Program-made: the position numbers and the translations under genes | Assembly: GCF_023008545.1 (NCBI RefSeq) | Contig: NZ_CP095397.1 | Coordinates: 3,523,199-3,587,198, forward strand | Origin: Natribaculum luteum | Lineage (GTDB): Archaea; Halobacteriota; Halobacteria; Halobacteriales; Natrialbaceae | Length of the DNA: 64,000 bases | Reading direction: 5' to 3' | In this document: piece by piece, positions 30,966-44,805 of the stretch | How positions within the stretch are numbered: the first letter of the stretch is position 1 | How the letters are laid out: each line of letters opens with the position of its first letter | The notes under the pieces: generated by a model | Databases searched by the model: none | Seen by the model: only the letters and a program-made list of their open reading frames with translations | Told to the model about the DNA's origin: nothing

Positions 30966-32366
30966 CATCCGTCTTTAGCTAAGCCAAGAACCGCATGACA
31001 GCGGCGGCTTATCGGAGTTGCTTTTCGGAAGGAATGAGGAGGTGACAGCTGTGCACACCGAAACCTCCTCACGTCACATTGAACGCCGTCTCACTAACCT
31101 CCTTCCCTCTGAAGCGCTCGAAGACCACGCCGATGCCGTCGGCGTGGTCGAGCGCGAGGGGAAGCTTCAGCTCCCGCCACTTGTCTGGTCGTTTGCGTTC
31201 GGCTTCGCCGCAGGCGAAAGCCGAACGCTTGCGGCCTTCAGACGTACCTACAACTCTACCGCTGACGAGTCACTTTCTCCGGGCGGCTTCTACCAGCGGT
31301 TGACTCCGACGCTCGCAGAGTACCTCCGCGACCTCGTCGAATACGGGTTCGACGAGGTCGCTGTCCTCACACCGTCTCTGATGAGTTCGACCGGTTTCGG
31401 ACGTGATGGTCGCTGATGGAACCGTCCTGCGGTTGCACGAGTTGCTCTCTGAAGCGTACAAAGCACGTCACGAGGAGCAGGCTGGAGCGAAGCTCCACCT
31501 GCTCCACAACGTCACTGACCAGACAGTCGAACATTTCAACGTCACAGACGAGAAAACGCACGACAGCACGTTGTTTAACACAGGATCGTGGCTGGAAGGA
31601 CGGCTAGCGATCTTCGACCTCGCCTATTTCAAGTACCGGCGGTTCGCGTTGATCGACGAGAACGACGGCTACTTCGTGAGCCGACTGAAAAAGAGCGCGA
31701 ACCCGGTTGTAACGGAGGAATTACGGGAATGGCGCGGCCGCGCCATTCCCTTAGAAGGCGAGAAGATCTTCGACATCGTGGATGATCTCTCCCGGAAGTA
31801 CATCGACGTGGAAGTCGAGGTCGAGTTTGACCGACGAGAGTACGCGGGCACGCAGTCACGTGATACGAAACGGTTCCGCGTCGTCGGCGTCCGCAACGAG
31901 GACGCCGACGACTACCATCTGTACATCACGAACCTTTCTCGGGAAGAGTTTCTCCCGGCCGATCTAGCGACGATCTACCGATGTAGATGGGAAGTAGAGC
32001 TGTTGTTCCGTGAACTGAAGACGCAGTACGAACTGGACGAGTTCGACACGACGAAGAAGCACATCGTAGAGATTCTGCTGTACGCAGCGTTGTTATCCTT
32101 GGTCGTGAGTCGTGATTTACTCGGTCTGGTCATAGAGCACGCTGATGATGGGATCGTGTTTCCGCCGGAACGCTGGGCGGCGACCTTTCGGTCGCACGCC
32201 CAGCTCATCCTCCGCGAACTGAGAGAGTATCTCGCCTACTCACCGCCGCCACTGCTACAACGACTGATCGAAGACGCTCAGAAGATCCACAGGCAACGAC
32301 CAATCCTGCAAGAACAGCTCGCTACTACCATCCAACCGGCTGCTGAGGCTTAGCTAAAGACCAATG
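30966..32366 (+). mobile_element. ISH8-type insertion sequence (IS4 family), about 1.4 kb
   Basis: The ends are 20-bp inverted repeats: CATCCGTCTTTAGCTAAGCC at 30966-30985, and CATTGGTCTTTAGCTAAGCC as the reverse complement of 32347-32366 (18 of 20 identical). They are flanked by a direct duplication of GTTCGACGGG or TTCGACGGG. The length of about 1.4 kb and the transposase place it in the ISH8 group of the IS4 family, common in haloarchaea. The transposase is frameshifted, so the element should not move by itself but could be mobilised by an active relative. Confidence 0.88.
31051..32353 (+). pseudogene. IS4-family (ISH8 group) transposase with two frameshifts
   Basis: The first frame (31051 to about 31370) encodes ERRLTNLLPSEALEDHADA, PLVWSFAFGFAAGESRTL and the segment VEYGFDEVAV. 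The second frame (from about 31400) encodes VMVADGTVLRLHE with the first catalytic Asp, FDLAYFKYRRFALIDENDGY, and the YREK signature YRCRWEVELLFRELK with the catalytic Glu. The frames join if one base is restored near 31365 (GTCCTCAC) and one near 31400 (TCGGACGTG), giving about 434 residues, the normal size. GTG at 31051 has AGGAGG at 31037-31042. Confidence 0.85.
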
Positions 32367-37387: not shown

Positions 37388-39004
37388 ATGTCATATATCA
37401 TTCGAATGCCAAAACTTGGCCTCGAGATGCAACAGGGGACGCTCCTCGAGTGGGCGATCGAGGAGGGGGAGACAGTCGAGGAGGGAGAACTGATCGCAGA
37501 GATCGAATCCGAAAAGAGCATCGGTGAGGTCGAGGCGCGAGCGGACGGCATCCTGCGTCGAACCTACCTCGAGGAGGGCGAGACGGTCCCGCCGAGCACG
37601 CCGATCGGCATTCTGGCTCCCGAAGACGCCGACGTGTCCGACCTCGAGCAGGAAGTCGAGAGCGACCTCGAGGTCGACGCCGAGGCCGACGAAACACCCG
37701 AACCGGCCGAGTCGACAGCCACGGCGACAGAACCCGATGCGGGATCGGCAGACACCAGTGACGTAAAGGCGACGCCGCGTGCCAAACAGCGGGCCGACGA
37801 ACTGGGCGTCGACCTCGCGACCATCGAGGGGACGGGCGTGCAGGGGGCTGTCACCGCCGAGGACGTCGAAGAGGCGCAGGCGGCGGGCGGCGACGGCGTC
37901 GAAGAGCGCGAACTGAGCGGGATGCGACGGACGATCGCCGATCGACTCGGCCAGAGTTACCGCGAGGCCGTCCACGTCACCGAACACCGAACGGCCGACG
38001 CGGCGGCGTTGCGTGCCGCTGCGACGGCGGCGTCCGACCAGCTCGAGGGGGACGTCTCGGTCACCGACGTCCTCCTGCGAGCGCTCTCCGCGACGCTGAT
38101 CGAGCACCCCGAGTTCAACGCGACCTACGAGGACGGCGTCCATCGGATCTACGACGCCCAGCACGTCTGCATCGCCGTCGACGTCGAGGAGGGACTCGTC
38201 ACGCCGGCGATGCGCGACGTCGAGTCGCTGTCGATCGACGAACTCGCCGACGAACGGCGGCGCGTCACCGACCTCGCGCTCGAGGGCGAGTACACGATGG
38301 ACGACCTGCAGGGCGGGACGTTCACCGTCACGAACCTTGGCGTCCTCGGCGTGGAGTCGTTCGATCCGGTCATCAATCCCCCGCAGATCGCGATCCTCGG
38401 CGTCGACAGTCTCGAGGAGCGCGTCGTTCCGGGCGACGACGGCGAGCCCGCGGTGCGTCCGGTGCTCCCGCTCGACCTCTCGTTCGACCACCGGATCGTC
38501 GACGGTGCCGACGCTGCCCGGTTCCTCGCCACGCTCGTCGAGTACGTCGAGGAACCGTGGGACCTCTTCGAGGGCGTCACGCCGACCGAGGCGGCCGCAG
38601 TCACGCGCCCCGACCGGTCGGTGACGGCCTCGGCGGGGCCGGAGTTCACCGGGACGGTCTCGGCAGGATCGTTCGAGTACGAGTTCGCCCCCGAAGCGCA
38701 GTTCGGCGGCGGCGACGCCCCGACGCCCGTCGATCACTTCCTCGGCGCGTTCGCCGCCTGCCTCTCGGGAAGCATCGCCATCCAGGCGGACATCCGCGAC
38801 GTCGACCTCGAGTCCGTCGACGTCGAGATGACCGGCGAGCCGGCGGAGGGGTCACTCGAGTCGGTCACCGTCGACGTCGAAATTGCGGCCGACGCGGACG
38901 ACGACGTCCTCGGGCGGATCGTCGAAAACGGCGAACGGACGTGTCACGTCTCGGAACTGCTGCGCGAGGACCTCCCCGTCGACCTCGACTGGACGCGGGC
39001 GTGA
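37388..39004 (+). CDS. 2-oxoacid dehydrogenase E2 (lipoyl acyltransferase) fused to an OsmC peroxidase domain
   Basis: A 538-residue protein. The lipoyl domain covers residues 1-79 with lipoyl Lys43 (ESEKSIGEV). An acidic Pro/Thr linker follows, then the E1/E3-binding domain at about 126-160 (ATPRAKQRADELGVDL). The acyltransferase domain is at about 175-400 with catalytic His368 and Asp372 (SFDHRIVDG). Residues 410-538 form an OsmC/Ohr-type domain that keeps both cysteines, Cys458 (GAFAACLSGS) and Cys519 (ERTCHVSELL). The lipoyl arm could hand electrons to the peroxidase (inference). E1 genes lie 1.4 kb away on the other strand; no E3 gene is in the window. Confidence 0.92.
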   Translation: MSYIIRMPKLGLEMQQGTLLEWAIEEGETVEEGELIAEIESEKSIGEVEARADGILRRTYLEEGETVPPSTPIGILAPEDADVSDLEQEVESDLEVDAEADETPEPAESTATATEPDAGSADTSDVKATPRAKQRADELGVDLATIEGTGVQGAVTAEDVEEAQAAGGDGVEERELSGMRRTIADRLGQSYREAVHVTEHRTADAAALRAAATAASDQLEGDVSVTDVLLRALSATLIEHPEFNATYEDGVHRIYDAQHVCIAVDVEEGLVTPAMRDVESLSIDELADERRRVTDLALEGEYTMDDLQGGTFTVTNLGVLGVESFDPVINPPQIAILGVDSLEERVVPGDDGEPAVRPVLPLDLSFDHRIVDGADAARFLATLVEYVEEPWDLFEGVTPTEAAAVTRPDRSVTASAGPEFTGTVSAGSFEYEFAPEAQFGGGDAPTPVDHFLGAFAACLSGSIAIQADIRDVDLESVDVEMTGEPAEGSLESVTVDVEIAADADDDVLGRIVENGERTCHVSELLREDLPVDLDWTRA

Positions 39005-39368: not shown

Positions 39369-40370
39369 TCACTCGAGTCGATCCGTTCGCAACGCACCTT
39401 CTGCAGCCACGAATACGGCGTCGACGTCGACGATTCTGGGGCCGTCGTCGATCGGTGCAACGTCGACGACCGCGTTCTGGAGTTCGAGTTCGCGCTCGCC
39501 GTCGACCGAGAGGACGCCGCGATCGACCTCGAATCGCGTCGACTCGTCGGCCGCGAGCGGTCGCCACTCCTCGACGCCGACGCGCTCGACTACGCCGGGG
39601 GCGACGATCGCCTGTACCGTCTCCGCGGCGGTCTCCGGCGGCCCGAGTCGGAAGCCGACGCCGCCGGGCGTTCCGGGACGGTGGGTCGTGAGCGCGCCGG
39701 CGACGCTCGAGAGGCCGATTTCGGCGGAGAACGCTCGAGAGACGACGCCACCGACGACCGTCGATGGGTCGAGGATCGCGCGGGTGCCGACGAACTCCAC
39801 GTCGAGGACGCCGAGCGTCGCCAGCCCCTGGAGTCGACTCTCGCCCGTCGGCGTGTCGGCGACCGCCTCTACCATTCCGTGGTCGATGCTGACCGCGTCG
39901 GGATCGACCGCCTCGGTCGCGATCAGCGCCGCCGCCGCACCCGCGACCGTCCCGTCGACCGCCGTCGGCACGACGTTGTTCGTCCCGGTCGAGACGCTCA
40001 CGAGTGGGACGTCGCCGACCTCGTGGGCGACGTCGCGGTTCGTCCCGTCCCCGCCGAGGACGACCACGACGTCGGCCTCGTCCCGAAAGCGCGCGGCGGC
40101 ACGACGCGTGTCCGCCGGGCCCCCCTCGACGGAGATCTCGAGTAAGTCCGCCGTCACCGCCGCTGGGGCCTCCGAGACGGCGTGGGCACCGATCCCAGCG
40201 CTGTCCGGCATCACCGCGAGCGTGCACTCGTCCGCTGCAACGCCCACGCCAGCGGCCACGCATTCGGCGATTCGTCGCTTCGAGTAGTCGTCGACGACGC
40301 TCGCACCGCCGGTCAGCCGACGAATGTCACGCCCTGCTGCGGGGTTGACGACGAGTCCAATGGTTGCCAC
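39369..40370 (-). CDS. ATP-NAD kinase-like protein
   Basis: A 333-residue protein of the NAD kinase/diacylglycerol kinase superfamily: IGLVVNPAAGRDIRRLTGGA at the start, the catalytic VVVLGGDGTNRDVAHEVGDV motif, then VSTGTNNVVPTAVDG. Members close to 2-oxoacid dehydrogenase genes are usually named AcoX-like; whether they phosphorylate NAD is not settled. The GTG start at 40370 lies 16 bp after the E1 beta stop, so it is the third gene of an E1 alpha-E1 beta-kinase operon. Confidence 0.87.
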   Translation of the reverse strand: MATIGLVVNPAAGRDIRRLTGGASVVDDYSKRRIAECVAAGVGVAADECTLAVMPDSAGIGAHAVSEAPAAVTADLLEISVEGGPADTRRAAARFRDEADVVVVLGGDGTNRDVAHEVGDVPLVSVSTGTNNVVPTAVDGTVAGAAAALIATEAVDPDAVSIDHGMVEAVADTPTGESRLQGLATLGVLDVEFVGTRAILDPSTVVGGVVSRAFSAEIGLSSVAGALTTHRPGTPGGVGFRLGPPETAAETVQAIVAPGVVERVGVEEWRPLAADESTRFEVDRGVLSVDGERELELQNAVVDVAPIDDGPRIVDVDAVFVAAEGALRTDRLE

Positions 40371-40386
40371 GGTGAAAACGCCTGGG

Positions 40387-41391
40387 TCAGACGATCCGGT
40401 TGATGGCGTTTTCGACGTCGGCCCCGCTGGGAAGGACCTCCTCCTCGAGCGGCGGACTGAACGGAATGTGCGTGTCTGGCGTTCCGACTCGCTGGACGGG
40501 CGCGTCGAGGCTGAAGAATCCCTCCTCCATGGCCCGCGTCGCGATTTCCGCGTGGGTGCCGTAGGAGAGCGGACTCTCGTCGGCGACGACGAGTCGGCCC
40601 GTCTTCTCCAGACTCGAGACGATCGTGTCGGTGTCGAGTGGGTACAGCGACCGGAGGTCGATGACTTCGACGTCGACGTCGCCCTCGAGGTCGTCCGCGA
40701 CGCCGAGCGATTCGCCGACGAGGCGCTGGGTCGCGACGACGGTGACGTCGTCGCCGGTGCGTTCGACCGACGCCTCGCCGATCGGGATCGTGAACTCCTC
40801 GTCGACCGGGACCTCGCCGCTGTCCTCGTAGATCATCTTGTTCTCGAAGAAGAACACCGGGTCGTTCGACCGGATGCTCGACTTCAGCAGTCCCTTGGCG
40901 GCCGCCGGCGTTCCCGGCGCGACCGCCTTGAGGCCGGGGAAGTGTGCGATCCAGGTGTGGATGGTCCCCGAGTGCTGGCTCGCGGCACCCATCCCGCCGC
41001 CCTCGGTGGTTCGGACGGTCACGGGCATCTCGATCTTCCCGCCGAACATGTAGCGCATCTTCGCCATCTGGTTGATGATCTGCTCGGCGGCGACGCCCAG
41101 GAAGTCCGAGAACATGATCTCGATGACCGGGCGCGTGCCGGTCGCGGCCGCCCCGGTGCCGAGACCTGCGAGTCCGGCCTCGCTGATCGGCGAGTCGACG
41201 ATCCGCTTTTCCCCGAACTCCTCCAGAAGGCCGTCGGTGACGCCGAGGACGCCGCCCATGACGCCGACGTCTTCGCCCATCACGAAGACGTCCTCGTCTC
41301 GCTCGAGTTCCTCGCGGAGGGCCTGGTTGATCGCCTCGCGTACGGTCATCCGATCGGTCGCTTCGGTCTCGAGTTCTGCGTGTGCTGTCAT
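40387..41391 (-). CDS. 2-oxoacid dehydrogenase E1 component, beta subunit
   Basis: A 334-residue transketolase-like subunit: MTVREAINQALREELERDE, VFVMGEDVGVMGGVLGVTDG, a DSPISEAGLAGLGTGAAATG segment and the later VVATQRLVGESLG. It pairs with the alpha subunit, with which it shares a 4-bp ATGA overlap, to decarboxylate pyruvate, acetoin or branched-chain 2-oxoacids. The AcoX-like neighbour hints at acetoin, but haloarchaeal members of this group have also been tied to branched-chain substrates. Confidence 0.94.
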   Translation of the reverse strand: MTAHAELETEATDRMTVREAINQALREELERDEDVFVMGEDVGVMGGVLGVTDGLLEEFGEKRIVDSPISEAGLAGLGTGAAATGTRPVIEIMFSDFLGVAAEQIINQMAKMRYMFGGKIEMPVTVRTTEGGGMGAASQHSGTIHTWIAHFPGLKAVAPGTPAAAKGLLKSSIRSNDPVFFFENKMIYEDSGEVPVDEEFTIPIGEASVERTGDDVTVVATQRLVGESLGVADDLEGDVDVEVIDLRSLYPLDTDTIVSSLEKTGRLVVADESPLSYGTHAEIATRAMEEGFFSLDAPVQRVGTPDTHIPFSPPLEEEVLPSGADVENAINRIV

Positions 41392-42434
41392 CGGTCGTCA
41401 CCTCGCTCGCCGCCGTCGGCGCGGAACTGCGCCGCGAAGTGCTGTATTTCGGGTGCCGGTTCCGCGAACATGTCCTCGTAGGCCTCGTCCGGTTCCGGCG
41501 TCGGTGCCTCTCGCGCGTGCTCGACCGCCTCGTCGACGGCCGTCGCGATCTCCTCGCGGAGTTGCTCGAACTCCTCGTCGGTGAGTTCGTCGCGGTCGAC
41601 GAGTCGCTGTTTGAACGTCTCGATCGGGTCGTCCTCGCGCTGCCAGCGCTCGACCTCGTCGTCGGTGCGGTACTCCTCTTCGTCGCCGACGAAGTGGCCA
41701 CGATAGCGGTACGTCTTCGCCTCGATCAGCGTGGGGCCGTCGCCGGCGTCGGCCCGGTCTCGGGCCTCGGCGACGGCCTCGTACACCGCCGTCACGTCCA
41801 TCCCGTCGATCGTGAACCCGGGGATGTCGTAGGCGTGGGCGGTGTCGCTCAGGTTCTCGACGTTGTGTTGTTTCTCGACAGGCGTCCCCTCGCCGTACTG
41901 GTTGTTCTCGACGACGTAGACGACCGGAAGGTCCCACGTGGCCGCCATGTTGATCGCCTCGTGGACCTGCCCCTGAGCGATGCCGCCGTCGCCACAGAAC
42001 GCCAGCGCGACCTGGTCGCGGTCGTCGTACTGGATGCTAAACGCTGCGCCGGTCGCCAGCGGCGGTCCGGCACCGACGATGCCGTTTGCGCCCAGCATGC
42101 CGGCGTCGACGTCCGCGATGTGCATCGAACCGCCTTTCCCCTTGCAGTAGCCCTCGCGTTTCCCGTACAGTTCGGCCATCATCCGCTCCGGGTCGAGTCC
42201 CTTCGCGAGACAGTGGCCGTGTCCCCGGTGCGTGCTGGTGATGTAGTCGTCCGGCTCGAGCGCCCCGATCGCGCCGACGGCGACCGCCTCTTCACCGATG
42301 TACGGGTGGACGAACCCTGGAATGTCGCCGTCGAGGAACCGCTTCTCGGCGGTCTCGTCGAACAGCCGGATCGTGAGCATTCGGCGCAGGGCCTCTTTGC
42401 GACCCTCCGGTTGCTCCATATCAATTGTTACCAT
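41388..42434 (-). CDS. 2-oxoacid dehydrogenase E1 component, alpha subunit
   Basis: A 348-residue thiamine-diphosphate subunit. The ThDP/Mg motif is GDGGIAQGQVHEAINMA...NN (VENNQYGEG), and the phosphorylation-loop region is YRYRGHFVGDEEEYR. TDDEVERWQREDDPIETFKQ is typical. The start is taken at ATG 42434; ATG 42419 is an alternative. It heads the minus-strand operon with the E1 beta and kinase-like genes, and it must work with the E2 encoded convergently at 37388. Confidence 0.94.
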   Translation of the reverse strand: MVTIDMEQPEGRKEALRRMLTIRLFDETAEKRFLDGDIPGFVHPYIGEEAVAVGAIGALEPDDYITSTHRGHGHCLAKGLDPERMMAELYGKREGYCKGKGGSMHIADVDAGMLGANGIVGAGPPLATGAAFSIQYDDRDQVALAFCGDGGIAQGQVHEAINMAATWDLPVVYVVENNQYGEGTPVEKQHNVENLSDTAHAYDIPGFTIDGMDVTAVYEAVAEARDRADAGDGPTLIEAKTYRYRGHFVGDEEEYRTDDEVERWQREDDPIETFKQRLVDRDELTDEEFEQLREEIATAVDEAVEHAREAPTPEPDEAYEDMFAEPAPEIQHFAAQFRADGGERGDDR

Positions 42435-43365: not shown

Positions 43366-44805
43366 ATGACAGACGAGCAAAACTACTCCCGCCTCTTCAT
43401 CGGGGGCGAATACGTCGCTGCATCGTCCGACGAGCATCTCACGAGCACCGATCCCGCCACGGGCGAACCGATCGCCGAGGTGGCGGCCGGAACCGAAGCC
43501 GACGTCGACCGGGCGGTCGCGGCCGCGAGTGATGCGTTCTCGGCCTGGCGAACGAAGTCCCCGGTAGAGCGCGGGCGGATCGTCGAGCGAGTCGGCGCGA
43601 TACTCCGGGAACGGACCGAGGAACTCGCACGCCTCGAGAGTCGCGATCAGGGCAAGCCGCTGTCACAGGCACGGCAGGACGTCGAGGGCGCCGCGCGGTA
43701 CTTCGAGTACTACGGCGGTGCGGCGGACAAACTCGAGGGCGAGAGTATTCCGCTCGGCCACGAGTCGCTGAACCTCACCGTTCGCGAACCGTACGGCGTA
43801 AGCGCTCAGATCATCCCCTGGAACTTCCCACTCAACATCACGGCTCGCGGTGTAGCGCCAGCACTCGTCGCCGGCAACACCGTCGTGGTCAAACCCGCTC
43901 CGACGACGCCGCTTACGGCGCTGGAGCTGGCCGAGTGCTGCCGAGAAGCCGGCATCCCCGACGGCGTCGTAAACGTCGTCACCGGCGAGACCGAACCCGG
44001 CGCGGCGCTCACGGCACACGACGGCGTCGACACCATCACGTTCACCGGCAGCGTCCCGACGGGGCAGGCCGTCATGACGTCGGCGGCCGAGACGATCACG
44101 CCCGTCACGCTCGAACTCGGCGGAAAGAATCCGGCGATCGTCATGCCAGACGCCGACCTCGAGGAAGCGGTCGACTGGATCGCCACCGGCATCTTCACCA
44201 ACGCCGGACAGATCTGTTCTGCCGCCGACCGCGCGATCGTCCACGAATCACGGTACGACGAGTTCGTCGACCACATCGTCGAGGTAGCCGAGTCGTACGA
44301 CCTCGGCCCCGGCGTCGACGACCCGGACATGGGGCCGCTCAACCACGCCGCCCACCTCGAGAAAGTCAAGCGGTACATCGACGTCGGGACCCGCGAAGGA
44401 GCGACCCTCGAGTGTGGCGGCGAGGCGCTCGATCGCGAGGGTCACTTTGTCCCGCCGACGGTGTTCTCGGACGTCGACCCCGGGATGCGTATCGCGAACG
44501 AGGAGATTTTCGGCCCCGTCCTCGCCGTCATCCCGTTCTCGGACCGCGACGAGGCCGTCGAGATCGCAAACGACGTCGAGTTTGGCCTCACCGGCGGCGT
44601 TTTCTCGAGGGACGTCAAACGAGCGCTCCGGATCGCCCGCGACGTCGAGGCGGGAAGCGTGTACGTCAACGAGTGGTTCGGCGACTCGAATCAGACGCCG
44701 TTCGGCGGCTTCAAGAAGAGCGGTATCGGTCGAGAGAAGGGACTCGAGGCGCTGGATTCCTATCTCCAGACGAAGCACGTCTCGGTAAACCTCGCGGAGC
44801 ACTGA
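43366..44805 (+). CDS. Aldehyde dehydrogenase (NAD(P)-dependent)
   Basis: A 479-residue member of the ALDH superfamily. The general base Glu is in ELGGKNPAIV and the nucleophile Cys in NAGQICSAADR; the cofactor region is PWNFPLNITARGVAPALVAGN, and EEIFGPVLAVIPF is near the C-terminus. The sequence group (succinate-semialdehyde/glycolaldehyde-like) oxidises small aldehydes; the exact substrate is open. The length is normal. Confidence 0.95.
   Translation: MTDEQNYSRLFIGGEYVAASSDEHLTSTDPATGEPIAEVAAGTEADVDRAVAAASDAFSAWRTKSPVERGRIVERVGAILRERTEELARLESRDQGKPLSQARQDVEGAARYFEYYGGAADKLEGESIPLGHESLNLTVREPYGVSAQIIPWNFPLNITARGVAPALVAGNTVVVKPAPTTPLTALELAECCREAGIPDGVVNVVTGETEPGAALTAHDGVDTITFTGSVPTGQAVMTSAAETITPVTLELGGKNPAIVMPDADLEEAVDWIATGIFTNAGQICSAADRAIVHESRYDEFVDHIVEVAESYDLGPGVDDPDMGPLNHAAHLEKVKRYIDVGTREGATLECGGEALDREGHFVPPTVFSDVDPGMRIANEEIFGPVLAVIPFSDRDEAVEIANDVEFGLTGGVFSRDVKRALRIARDVEAGSVYVNEWFGDSNQTPFGGFKKSGIGREKGLEALDSYLQTKHVSVNLAEH

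What the first reader, a model, noticed from the sequence alone, without database searches (positions are those of the whole stretch)
37388..39004. E2 acyltransferase fused to an OsmC/Ohr peroxidase domain
One open frame encodes a full lipoyl acyltransferase (lipoyl Lys43, His368/Asp372 of the DHRxxDG motif) followed by a 130-residue OsmC-type domain with both cysteines kept (Cys458, Cys519). In bacteria, Ohr/OsmC peroxidases take their electrons from lipoylated E2 proteins and dihydrolipoamide dehydrogenase. A covalent fusion would therefore make a self-contained lipoyl-driven hydroperoxide reductase within the dehydrogenase complex, protecting lipoamide or coupling catabolism to peroxide defence.
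Basis: partly seen in the sequence, partly recalled or inferred. Interest (0 to 1): 0.72.

Follow-up and report, generated by a model that had tools for sequence, protein, structure and literature searches.

The report
Acyltransferase fused to OsmC redox domain
In salt-loving archaea the core enzyme of an acetoin-dehydrogenase-like complex carries an extra cysteine-based redox domain on the same chain, so one protein holds both the lipoyl electron carrier and a probable user of its electrons; the fusion is real and conserved, but its activity is untested.

Summary
One uninterrupted 538-aa frame (37388-39004, +) of a haloarchaeon encodes lipoyl, E3-binding, acyltransferase and OsmC domains, with Lys43, His368, Asp372, Cys458 and Cys519 in place. 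It is conserved: in 42 of 392 Halobacteriales genomes the OsmC domain lies in a 493-700-aa frame. I read 40 such proteins; all are E2-OsmC. The OsmC part evolves under purifying selection and in step with the acyltransferase. Beside the gene lie E1-alpha, E1-beta and an AcoX-like protein, so the host complex is most likely an acetoin-dehydrogenase type. The domain has the OsmC fold and both cysteines, but not the Arg/Glu pair of Ohr peroxidases (Phe420 and Val448 here), and scores far below the Ohr family cut-off; "Ohr peroxidase" is too specific. Support for lipoyl-to-OsmC electron flow comes from a second locus in the same genome: a lipoyl-E3 fusion, a stand-alone OsmC and a lipoate ligase, without E1 or E2, kept together in related genomes. 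Complications: short relatives keep OsmC but have lost the lipoyl lysine and acyltransferase, and many related complexes lack OsmC. Verdict: new variant of a known kind, a lipoyl-coupled thiol reductase, possibly a peroxidase, built into E2.

The parts
37388..39004 (+). E2-OsmC fusion gene (538 aa)
37400..37612 (+). lipoyl domain, residues 5-75; lipoyl Lys43 at 37514-37516
   Evidence: Pfam PF00364 49.7 bits; K43 invariant in 24 fusions
37763..37870 (+). E3-binding (peripheral subunit-binding) domain, residues 126-161
   Evidence: Pfam PF02817 45.6 bits
37901..38569 (+). acyltransferase catalytic domain, residues 172-394; His368 and Asp372 of DHRIVDG
   Evidence: Pfam PF00198 216 bits; H368 and N316 invariant in 24 fusions
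38570..38611 (+). inter-domain linker, residues 395-408 (13-42 residues in relatives)
38612..39001 (+). OsmC domain, residues 409-538; Cys458 (38759-38761) and Cys519 (38942-38944)
   Evidence: Pfam PF02566 59.1 bits; AlphaFold2 model with OsmC fold; both Cys invariant
39369..40370 (-). AcoX-like NAD-kinase-family protein, convergent neighbour
   Evidence: PF01513 43.1 bits; matches annotated bacterial 'acetoin catabolism protein X'
40387..41391 (-). E1-beta subunit
   Evidence: Transket_pyr and Transketolase_C; NF006667 339 bits over cut-off 321
41388..42434 (-). E1-alpha subunit
   Evidence: E1_dh 328.8 bits
43366..44805 (+). aldehyde dehydrogenase; candidate user of acetaldehyde from acetoin cleavage (inferred; a close copy beside the cluster was seen only in the window's genus)
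   Evidence: Aldedh 597.7 bits

Best explanation
The protein is the E2 core of an acetoin-dehydrogenase-like complex to which an OsmC-superfamily domain has been joined. Proposed mechanism: E1 loads acyl groups on the lipoyl arm (Lys43) and the E2 domain passes them to CoA, leaving dihydrolipoyl. E3, docked on the E3-binding domain, exchanges electrons between dihydrolipoyl and NAD(H). The same arm can reach the OsmC domain and reduce its Cys458-Cys519 disulfide, which in turn reduces an oxidised substrate, most likely an organic hydroperoxide or a small disulfide. Shown here: the fusion, its conservation, the intact residues, the fold and the gene neighbourhood. Inferred: the acetoin substrate, electron flow from lipoyl to the OsmC cysteines, and the final substrate.
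For: Four domains on one chain, with lipoyl Lys, acyltransferase His and both OsmC Cys invariant in 24 fusions. OsmC dN/dS 0.12-0.37, and pairwise identities of OsmC and acyltransferase domains correlate at 0.85 over 29 fusions. OsmC fold in the model: Z 12.5 to 3cje, 12.0 to Ohr 6mjn, 10.7 to OhrB with dihydrolipoamide (6ebd, 6ebg); Cys458 lies in the long helix and Cys519 at the end of the next. An independent lipoyl-E3 fusion beside a stand-alone OsmC in 13 of the 17 closest OsmC loci, most also with lipoate ligase, and no E1 or E2 in the four wider loci read. E1-alpha/E1-beta/AcoX beside 20 of the fusions, the gene set of an annotated bacterial acetoin cluster. Literature: lipoyl/E3 reduces Ohr and also OsmC (PMC4486171).
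Against: The Ohr catalytic Arg and Glu are not conserved, so peroxide activation must differ or be absent. Seven short relatives keep the OsmC cysteines but have lost the lipoyl Lys, the E3-binding domain and the acyltransferase, and one fusion (L044) has lost the lipoyl domain, so a lipoyl arm in cis is not always needed. Fourteen AcoX-linked E2s with an intact acyltransferase have no fused OsmC, so the domain is dispensable for the complex.
Confidence: 0.5

Rival explanations
1. The OsmC domain is a thiol/disulfide sensor or protector of the complex: its cysteine pair buffers or repairs oxidised or over-reduced lipoyl and E2 thiols and regulates flux, without being a peroxidase.
For: Both cysteines and the fold are kept but the Ohr Arg/Glu pair is not. 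A purely lipoyl-linked role fits the fused E2 and the lipoyl-E3/OsmC/lipoate-ligase set.
Against: Short relatives without lipoyl Lys or acyltransferase still keep the OsmC cysteines, so OsmC has a role beyond guarding its own E2.
Confidence: 0.22
2. The OsmC domain is a true lipoyl-driven organic hydroperoxide peroxidase, as the first reader proposed (a special case of the best explanation), using a different residue set, for example the conserved Asp449 and Arg517, to activate Cys458.
For: OsmC superfamily fold and both cysteines. Asp449 and Arg517 are nearly invariant (columns D41 and R109). Lpd/SucB supports OsmC and Ohr in bacteria (PMC4486171).
Against: No Arg at the Ohr position and Val at the Glu position; Ohr model score 20 against cut-off 88.85. 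The YhfA register P-x-[DE] is shared with a subfamily not counted among the peroxidases (PMC4069020).
Confidence: 0.33
3. The OsmC domain is only a structural or oligomerisation add-on: OsmC is a dimer and may tie E2 trimers together; its chemistry is vestigial.
For: The linker is short (13-42 residues) and the domain sits at the C-terminus of the E2 core. OsmC proteins are dimers (general knowledge).
Against: Both cysteines are invariant in the diverse fusions and in the short forms that no longer have an E2 core, which argues for retained chemistry.
Confidence: 0.1
4. Accidental fusion or annotation artefact: two genes joined by a lost stop codon or a sequencing error.
For: 11 of 29 fusions have Met-Pro-x-Arg at the start of the OsmC part, which looks like an old start codon of a once separate gene.
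Against: Forty fusions read in several families, purifying selection on both halves.
Confidence: 0.02

Closest known systems
Ohr/OsmC lipoyl-dependent peroxidase system (Ohr or OsmC + lipoylated SucB/E2 + Lpd), e.g. Xylella, Corynebacterium (PMC4486171, PMC4069020)
   Same: OsmC-superfamily fold with two conserved cysteines; lipoyl domain and E3 as the expected electron path
   Different: Here the OsmC domain is fused to the lipoyl-bearing E2; the Ohr Arg/Glu pair is absent; activity unknown
AhpC/AhpD-SucB-Lpd peroxidase of Mycobacterium tuberculosis (from memory: Bryk et al. 2002)
   Same: A metabolic E2 lends electrons to a peroxide reductase
   Different: Separate proteins, unrelated all-helical AhpD adaptor; no fusion
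Acetoin dehydrogenase complex AcoABC with AcoX (bacterial aco operons; Paracoccus pFER3)
   Same: E1-alpha, E1-beta, AcoX-like protein and a lipoyl E2 encoded together
   Different: No OsmC domain is annotated on the bacterial AcoC; here E2 is convergent to the E1/AcoX genes; substrate not tested
Lipoyl-domain-fused dihydrolipoamide dehydrogenase of halophiles (LpdA cluster 14_1.2 in the archaeal fusion survey PMC11237513)
   Same: The lipoyl-E3 protein beside OsmC2 and LplA in the window's genome is of this architecture
   Different: The survey's main text does not mention OsmC, and so neither the neighbouring OsmC gene nor the E2-OsmC fusion

Membership tests
2-oxoacid dehydrogenase E2 (dihydrolipoyl acyltransferase) | lipoyl domain with lipoylation Lys, E3-binding domain, catalytic domain with DHRxxDG His | tested here: met
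   Pfam over cut-offs; K43, H368 invariant in 24 fusions; three relatives have N for D372
OsmC/Ohr superfamily (PF02566) | OsmC fold with two conserved cysteines | tested here: met
   59.1 bits, cut-off 27.5; AlphaFold2 model matches OsmC/Ohr structures at Z 10-12.5; C458, C519 invariant
Ohr subfamily (organic hydroperoxide resistance) | active-site Arg (Xylella Arg19) and Glu (Glu51) around the peroxidatic Cys (PMC5962072) | tested here: not met
   Arg position is Phe420, Leu or Met in most fusions, Glu position Val448; Asp449 in the next position
Ohr subfamily (organic hydroperoxide resistance) | score over NCBIfam TIGR03561 cut-off | tested here: not met
   20.2 bits against 88.85
Lipoyl-dependent peroxidase system | electron transfer NADH to E3 to lipoyl to OsmC Cys pair to hydroperoxide | not testable with these tools
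   Only the parts list and gene linkage are shown; needs enzymology
Acetoin dehydrogenase complex | E1-alpha, E1-beta and AcoX genes beside the E2 | tested here: met
   window 39369-42434; AcoX match to annotated acetoin catabolism protein X; AcoX within about 3 kb of 20 fusions
Acetoin dehydrogenase complex | acetoin as substrate of E1 | not testable with these tools
   Best solved relatives of E1-alpha are pyruvate dehydrogenases, so sequence alone does not settle it

The most novel reading that the evidence does not exclude
The fused OsmC domain gives the complex a second electron outlet: dihydrolipoyl made during acetoin (or other 2-oxo or acyloin) cleavage, or by E3 from NADH, is spent directly on hydroperoxides or disulfides inside the complex, making a self-contained catabolism-driven reductase; the lipoyl-E3/OsmC/LplA cluster is a stripped-down version of the same design without any dehydrogenase.
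Probability: 0.35. Interest if true: 0.75.

Novelty: new variant of a known kind. Interest (0 to 1): 0.58.

Why it matters
Lipoyl arms of metabolic complexes are known to lend electrons to separate peroxide reductases in bacteria. A conserved covalent version in haloarchaea, with a parallel lipoyl-E3/OsmC gene set, would show that this coupling is selected for in its own right, would give the OsmC-like subfamilies outside Ohr and OsmC a testable reductant, and would offer one purified chain on which lipoyl-to-OsmC electron transfer can be measured directly.

Tried and rejected
1) Artefact or chance read-through: rejected by 40 fusions read and by dN/dS. 2) Filing the domain as Ohr: rejected by residue and score tests. 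3) Filing it simply as YhfA: the acidic residue sits in the YhfA register (P-x-[DE]), but the profile scores 2onf Ta0195 (54 bits) and Ohr (48) above YhfA 1ml8 (26); left as an unassigned OsmC branch. 4) Short lipoyl-OsmC proteins looked at first like proof of a lipoyl-OsmC unit, but on reading they have lost the lipoyl Lys, so they count against a strict cis mechanism. 6) The full-length AlphaFold2 model is of middling confidence (pLDDT 65.7, pTM 0.42), with residues 401-446 under pLDDT 50, and was not used for domain geometry. 7) A sample of 393 genomes of the phylum gave no match to the domain at 1e-9 outside the order; rarer occurrences elsewhere are not excluded. 8) Papers searched did not describe the fusion; subscription journals are mostly not in the library.

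Full report
What is there. The frame 37388-39004 (+) is open for 538 codons. Pfam assigns lipoyl (5-75), E3-binding (126-161), acyltransferase (172-394) and OsmC (440-533) domains, each over its curated cut-off. The E3-binding domain, not mentioned in the finding, matters because it brings E3 to the same chain.

It is conserved. The OsmC part was searched in 392 Halobacteriales genomes: 57 have a match at 1e-12, and 43 of the matches, in 42 genomes, lie in open frames of 493-700 aa. I read 40 distinct ones; all are E2-OsmC, one (L044) without the lipoyl domain. Named hosts include Natrinema ejinorense, Natronococcus pandeyae, Natronorubrum bangense and Halegenticoccus soli; Haloferax marinum and H. 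gibbonsii have the same cluster with an E2 that lacks OsmC. In 24 aligned full-length fusions K43, N316, H368, C458 and C519 are invariant. dN/dS of the OsmC part is 0.12-0.37 in the close pairs where it could be computed, and its pairwise identities follow those of the acyltransferase (r = 0.85, 29 fusions). On the acyltransferase tree the OsmC label needs 6 changes, which fits an old fusion lost several times, or a few gains; the tree cannot tell which. In a sample of 393 genomes of the phylum no match to the domain at 1e-9 was found outside the order.

Neighbourhood. Convergent to the gene lie an NAD-kinase-family protein, E1-beta and E1-alpha (39369-42434, -). The first matches bacterial proteins annotated as acetoin catabolism protein X; in Paracoccus ferrooxidans plasmid pFER3 this gene is followed by E1-alpha, E1-beta, an acetoin dehydrogenase E2 and, further on, 2,3-butanediol dehydrogenase. 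The complex is therefore most likely of the acetoin-dehydrogenase type; an aldehyde dehydrogenase at 43366-44805 would suit acetaldehyde removal, but a close copy was seen beside the cluster only in the window's genus. E1-alpha's best solved relatives are pyruvate dehydrogenases, so the substrate stays open.

The OsmC domain. AlphaFold2 on residues 401-538 with four fusion relatives gives an OsmC fold (pLDDT 71.8), with VIA Z 12.5 to 3cje, 12.2 to YhfA 1ml8, 12.0 to Ohr 6mjn and 10.7 to OhrB crystallised with dihydrolipoamide. Cys458 lies in the long central helix and Cys519 at the end of the following one. But aligned with E. coli OsmC, YhfA and three annotated Ohr proteins, the Ohr Arg is Phe420 here (mostly Leu or Met in relatives) and the Ohr Glu is Val448, with a conserved acidic residue (Asp449) one position on. 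The Ohr family model gives 20 bits against a cut-off of 88.85. None of the eight OsmC-family proteins found in this genome shows the Ohr Arg-plus-NPEQ pattern. So the domain is a member of the superfamily but not of the Ohr subfamily; YhfA-type proteins, whose acidic register it shares, are not counted among the peroxidases (PMC4069020).

Independent link between OsmC and lipoyl. On a second replicon of the same genome (L109) an E3 with an N-terminal lipoyl domain is followed by a stand-alone OsmC protein and a lipoate-protein ligase. Among the 17 loci with the closest OsmC relatives (about 70% identity or more), 13 have the lipoyl-E3 directly beside it, most also the ligase. In the four loci read over a wider stretch (L109, L199, L200, L212) there is no E1 or E2. 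There the lipoyl arm can hardly serve acyl transfer, which points to NADH-E3-lipoyl-OsmC electron flow. The lipoyl-E3 fusion itself is known (PMC11237513).

Complications. Seven short relatives (244-271 aa) consist of a lipoyl-like domain and OsmC, but the lipoyl Lys is lost and the acyltransferase is gone, while both OsmC cysteines stay. So the OsmC function can outlive its lipoyl arm, perhaps served in trans. Among AcoX-linked complexes without the fusion, 14 have an intact E2 and about as many have an E2 with a lipoyl Lys but no catalytic His, so OsmC is an optional module. Eleven of 29 fusions have Met-Pro-x-Arg where the OsmC part begins, probably the old start codon of a once separate gene; the window lacks this Met.

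Mechanism, with status. Shown: the covalent arrangement, its conservation, fold and gene context. Known from bacteria: lipoylated proteins with Lpd reduce Ohr, and Lpd/SucB is reported to serve OsmC and AhpC too (PMC4486171). Inferred: that the arm on Lys43 reduces the Cys458-Cys519 disulfide in the same complex, and that the final acceptor is a hydroperoxide or a small disulfide. I put the lipoyl-to-OsmC electron path at about one half and organic hydroperoxide as the acceptor at about one third.

Novelty. I found no description of an E2-OsmC fusion in the papers searched; the archaeal fusion survey does not mention OsmC in its main text. It is a new variant of a known kind, the coupling of lipoyl complexes to thiol-based reductases, not a new kind of system.

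Noticed in passing
L109:7401-11428 (window's genome, second replicon): Lipoyl-E3 fusion, stand-alone OsmC and lipoate-protein ligase in a row, the lipoyl-E3 and OsmC kept together in 13 of 17 loci with close OsmC relatives, with no E1 or E2 in the four wider loci read; looks like a dehydrogenase-free lipoyl reductase set.
   Followed up: yes
L049, L061, L138, L174, L175, L177-L179, L181, L182, L185, L191-L193: Beside the same E1-AcoX genes, about 14 genomes encode an E2 with, in most, an intact lipoyl Lys but an acyltransferase that lost its catalytic His (YDxR instead of FDHR); how these complexes release the acyl group is unclear.
   Followed up: partly
L057, L058, L113, L119, L120, L121, L134: Short proteins of a lipoyl-like domain without the lipoyl Lys joined to OsmC, away from E1 genes; apparent remnants of the fusion in which only the OsmC part stays conserved.
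   Followed up: partly
L044:10188-11618: A fusion that lost its lipoyl and E3-binding domains but keeps acyltransferase and OsmC.
   Followed up: no
L299 (Paracoccus ferrooxidans pFER3): A carboxymuconolactone-decarboxylase family gene (the AhpD superfamily) sits inside the bacterial acetoin operon near the lipoyl E2; perhaps another lipoyl-linked redox partner.
   Followed up: no
window 31018-32353: A DDE transposase split into two overlapping frames; full-length 445-aa copies stand on the second replicon (L109:4249-5586, L130:614-1951).
   Followed up: no
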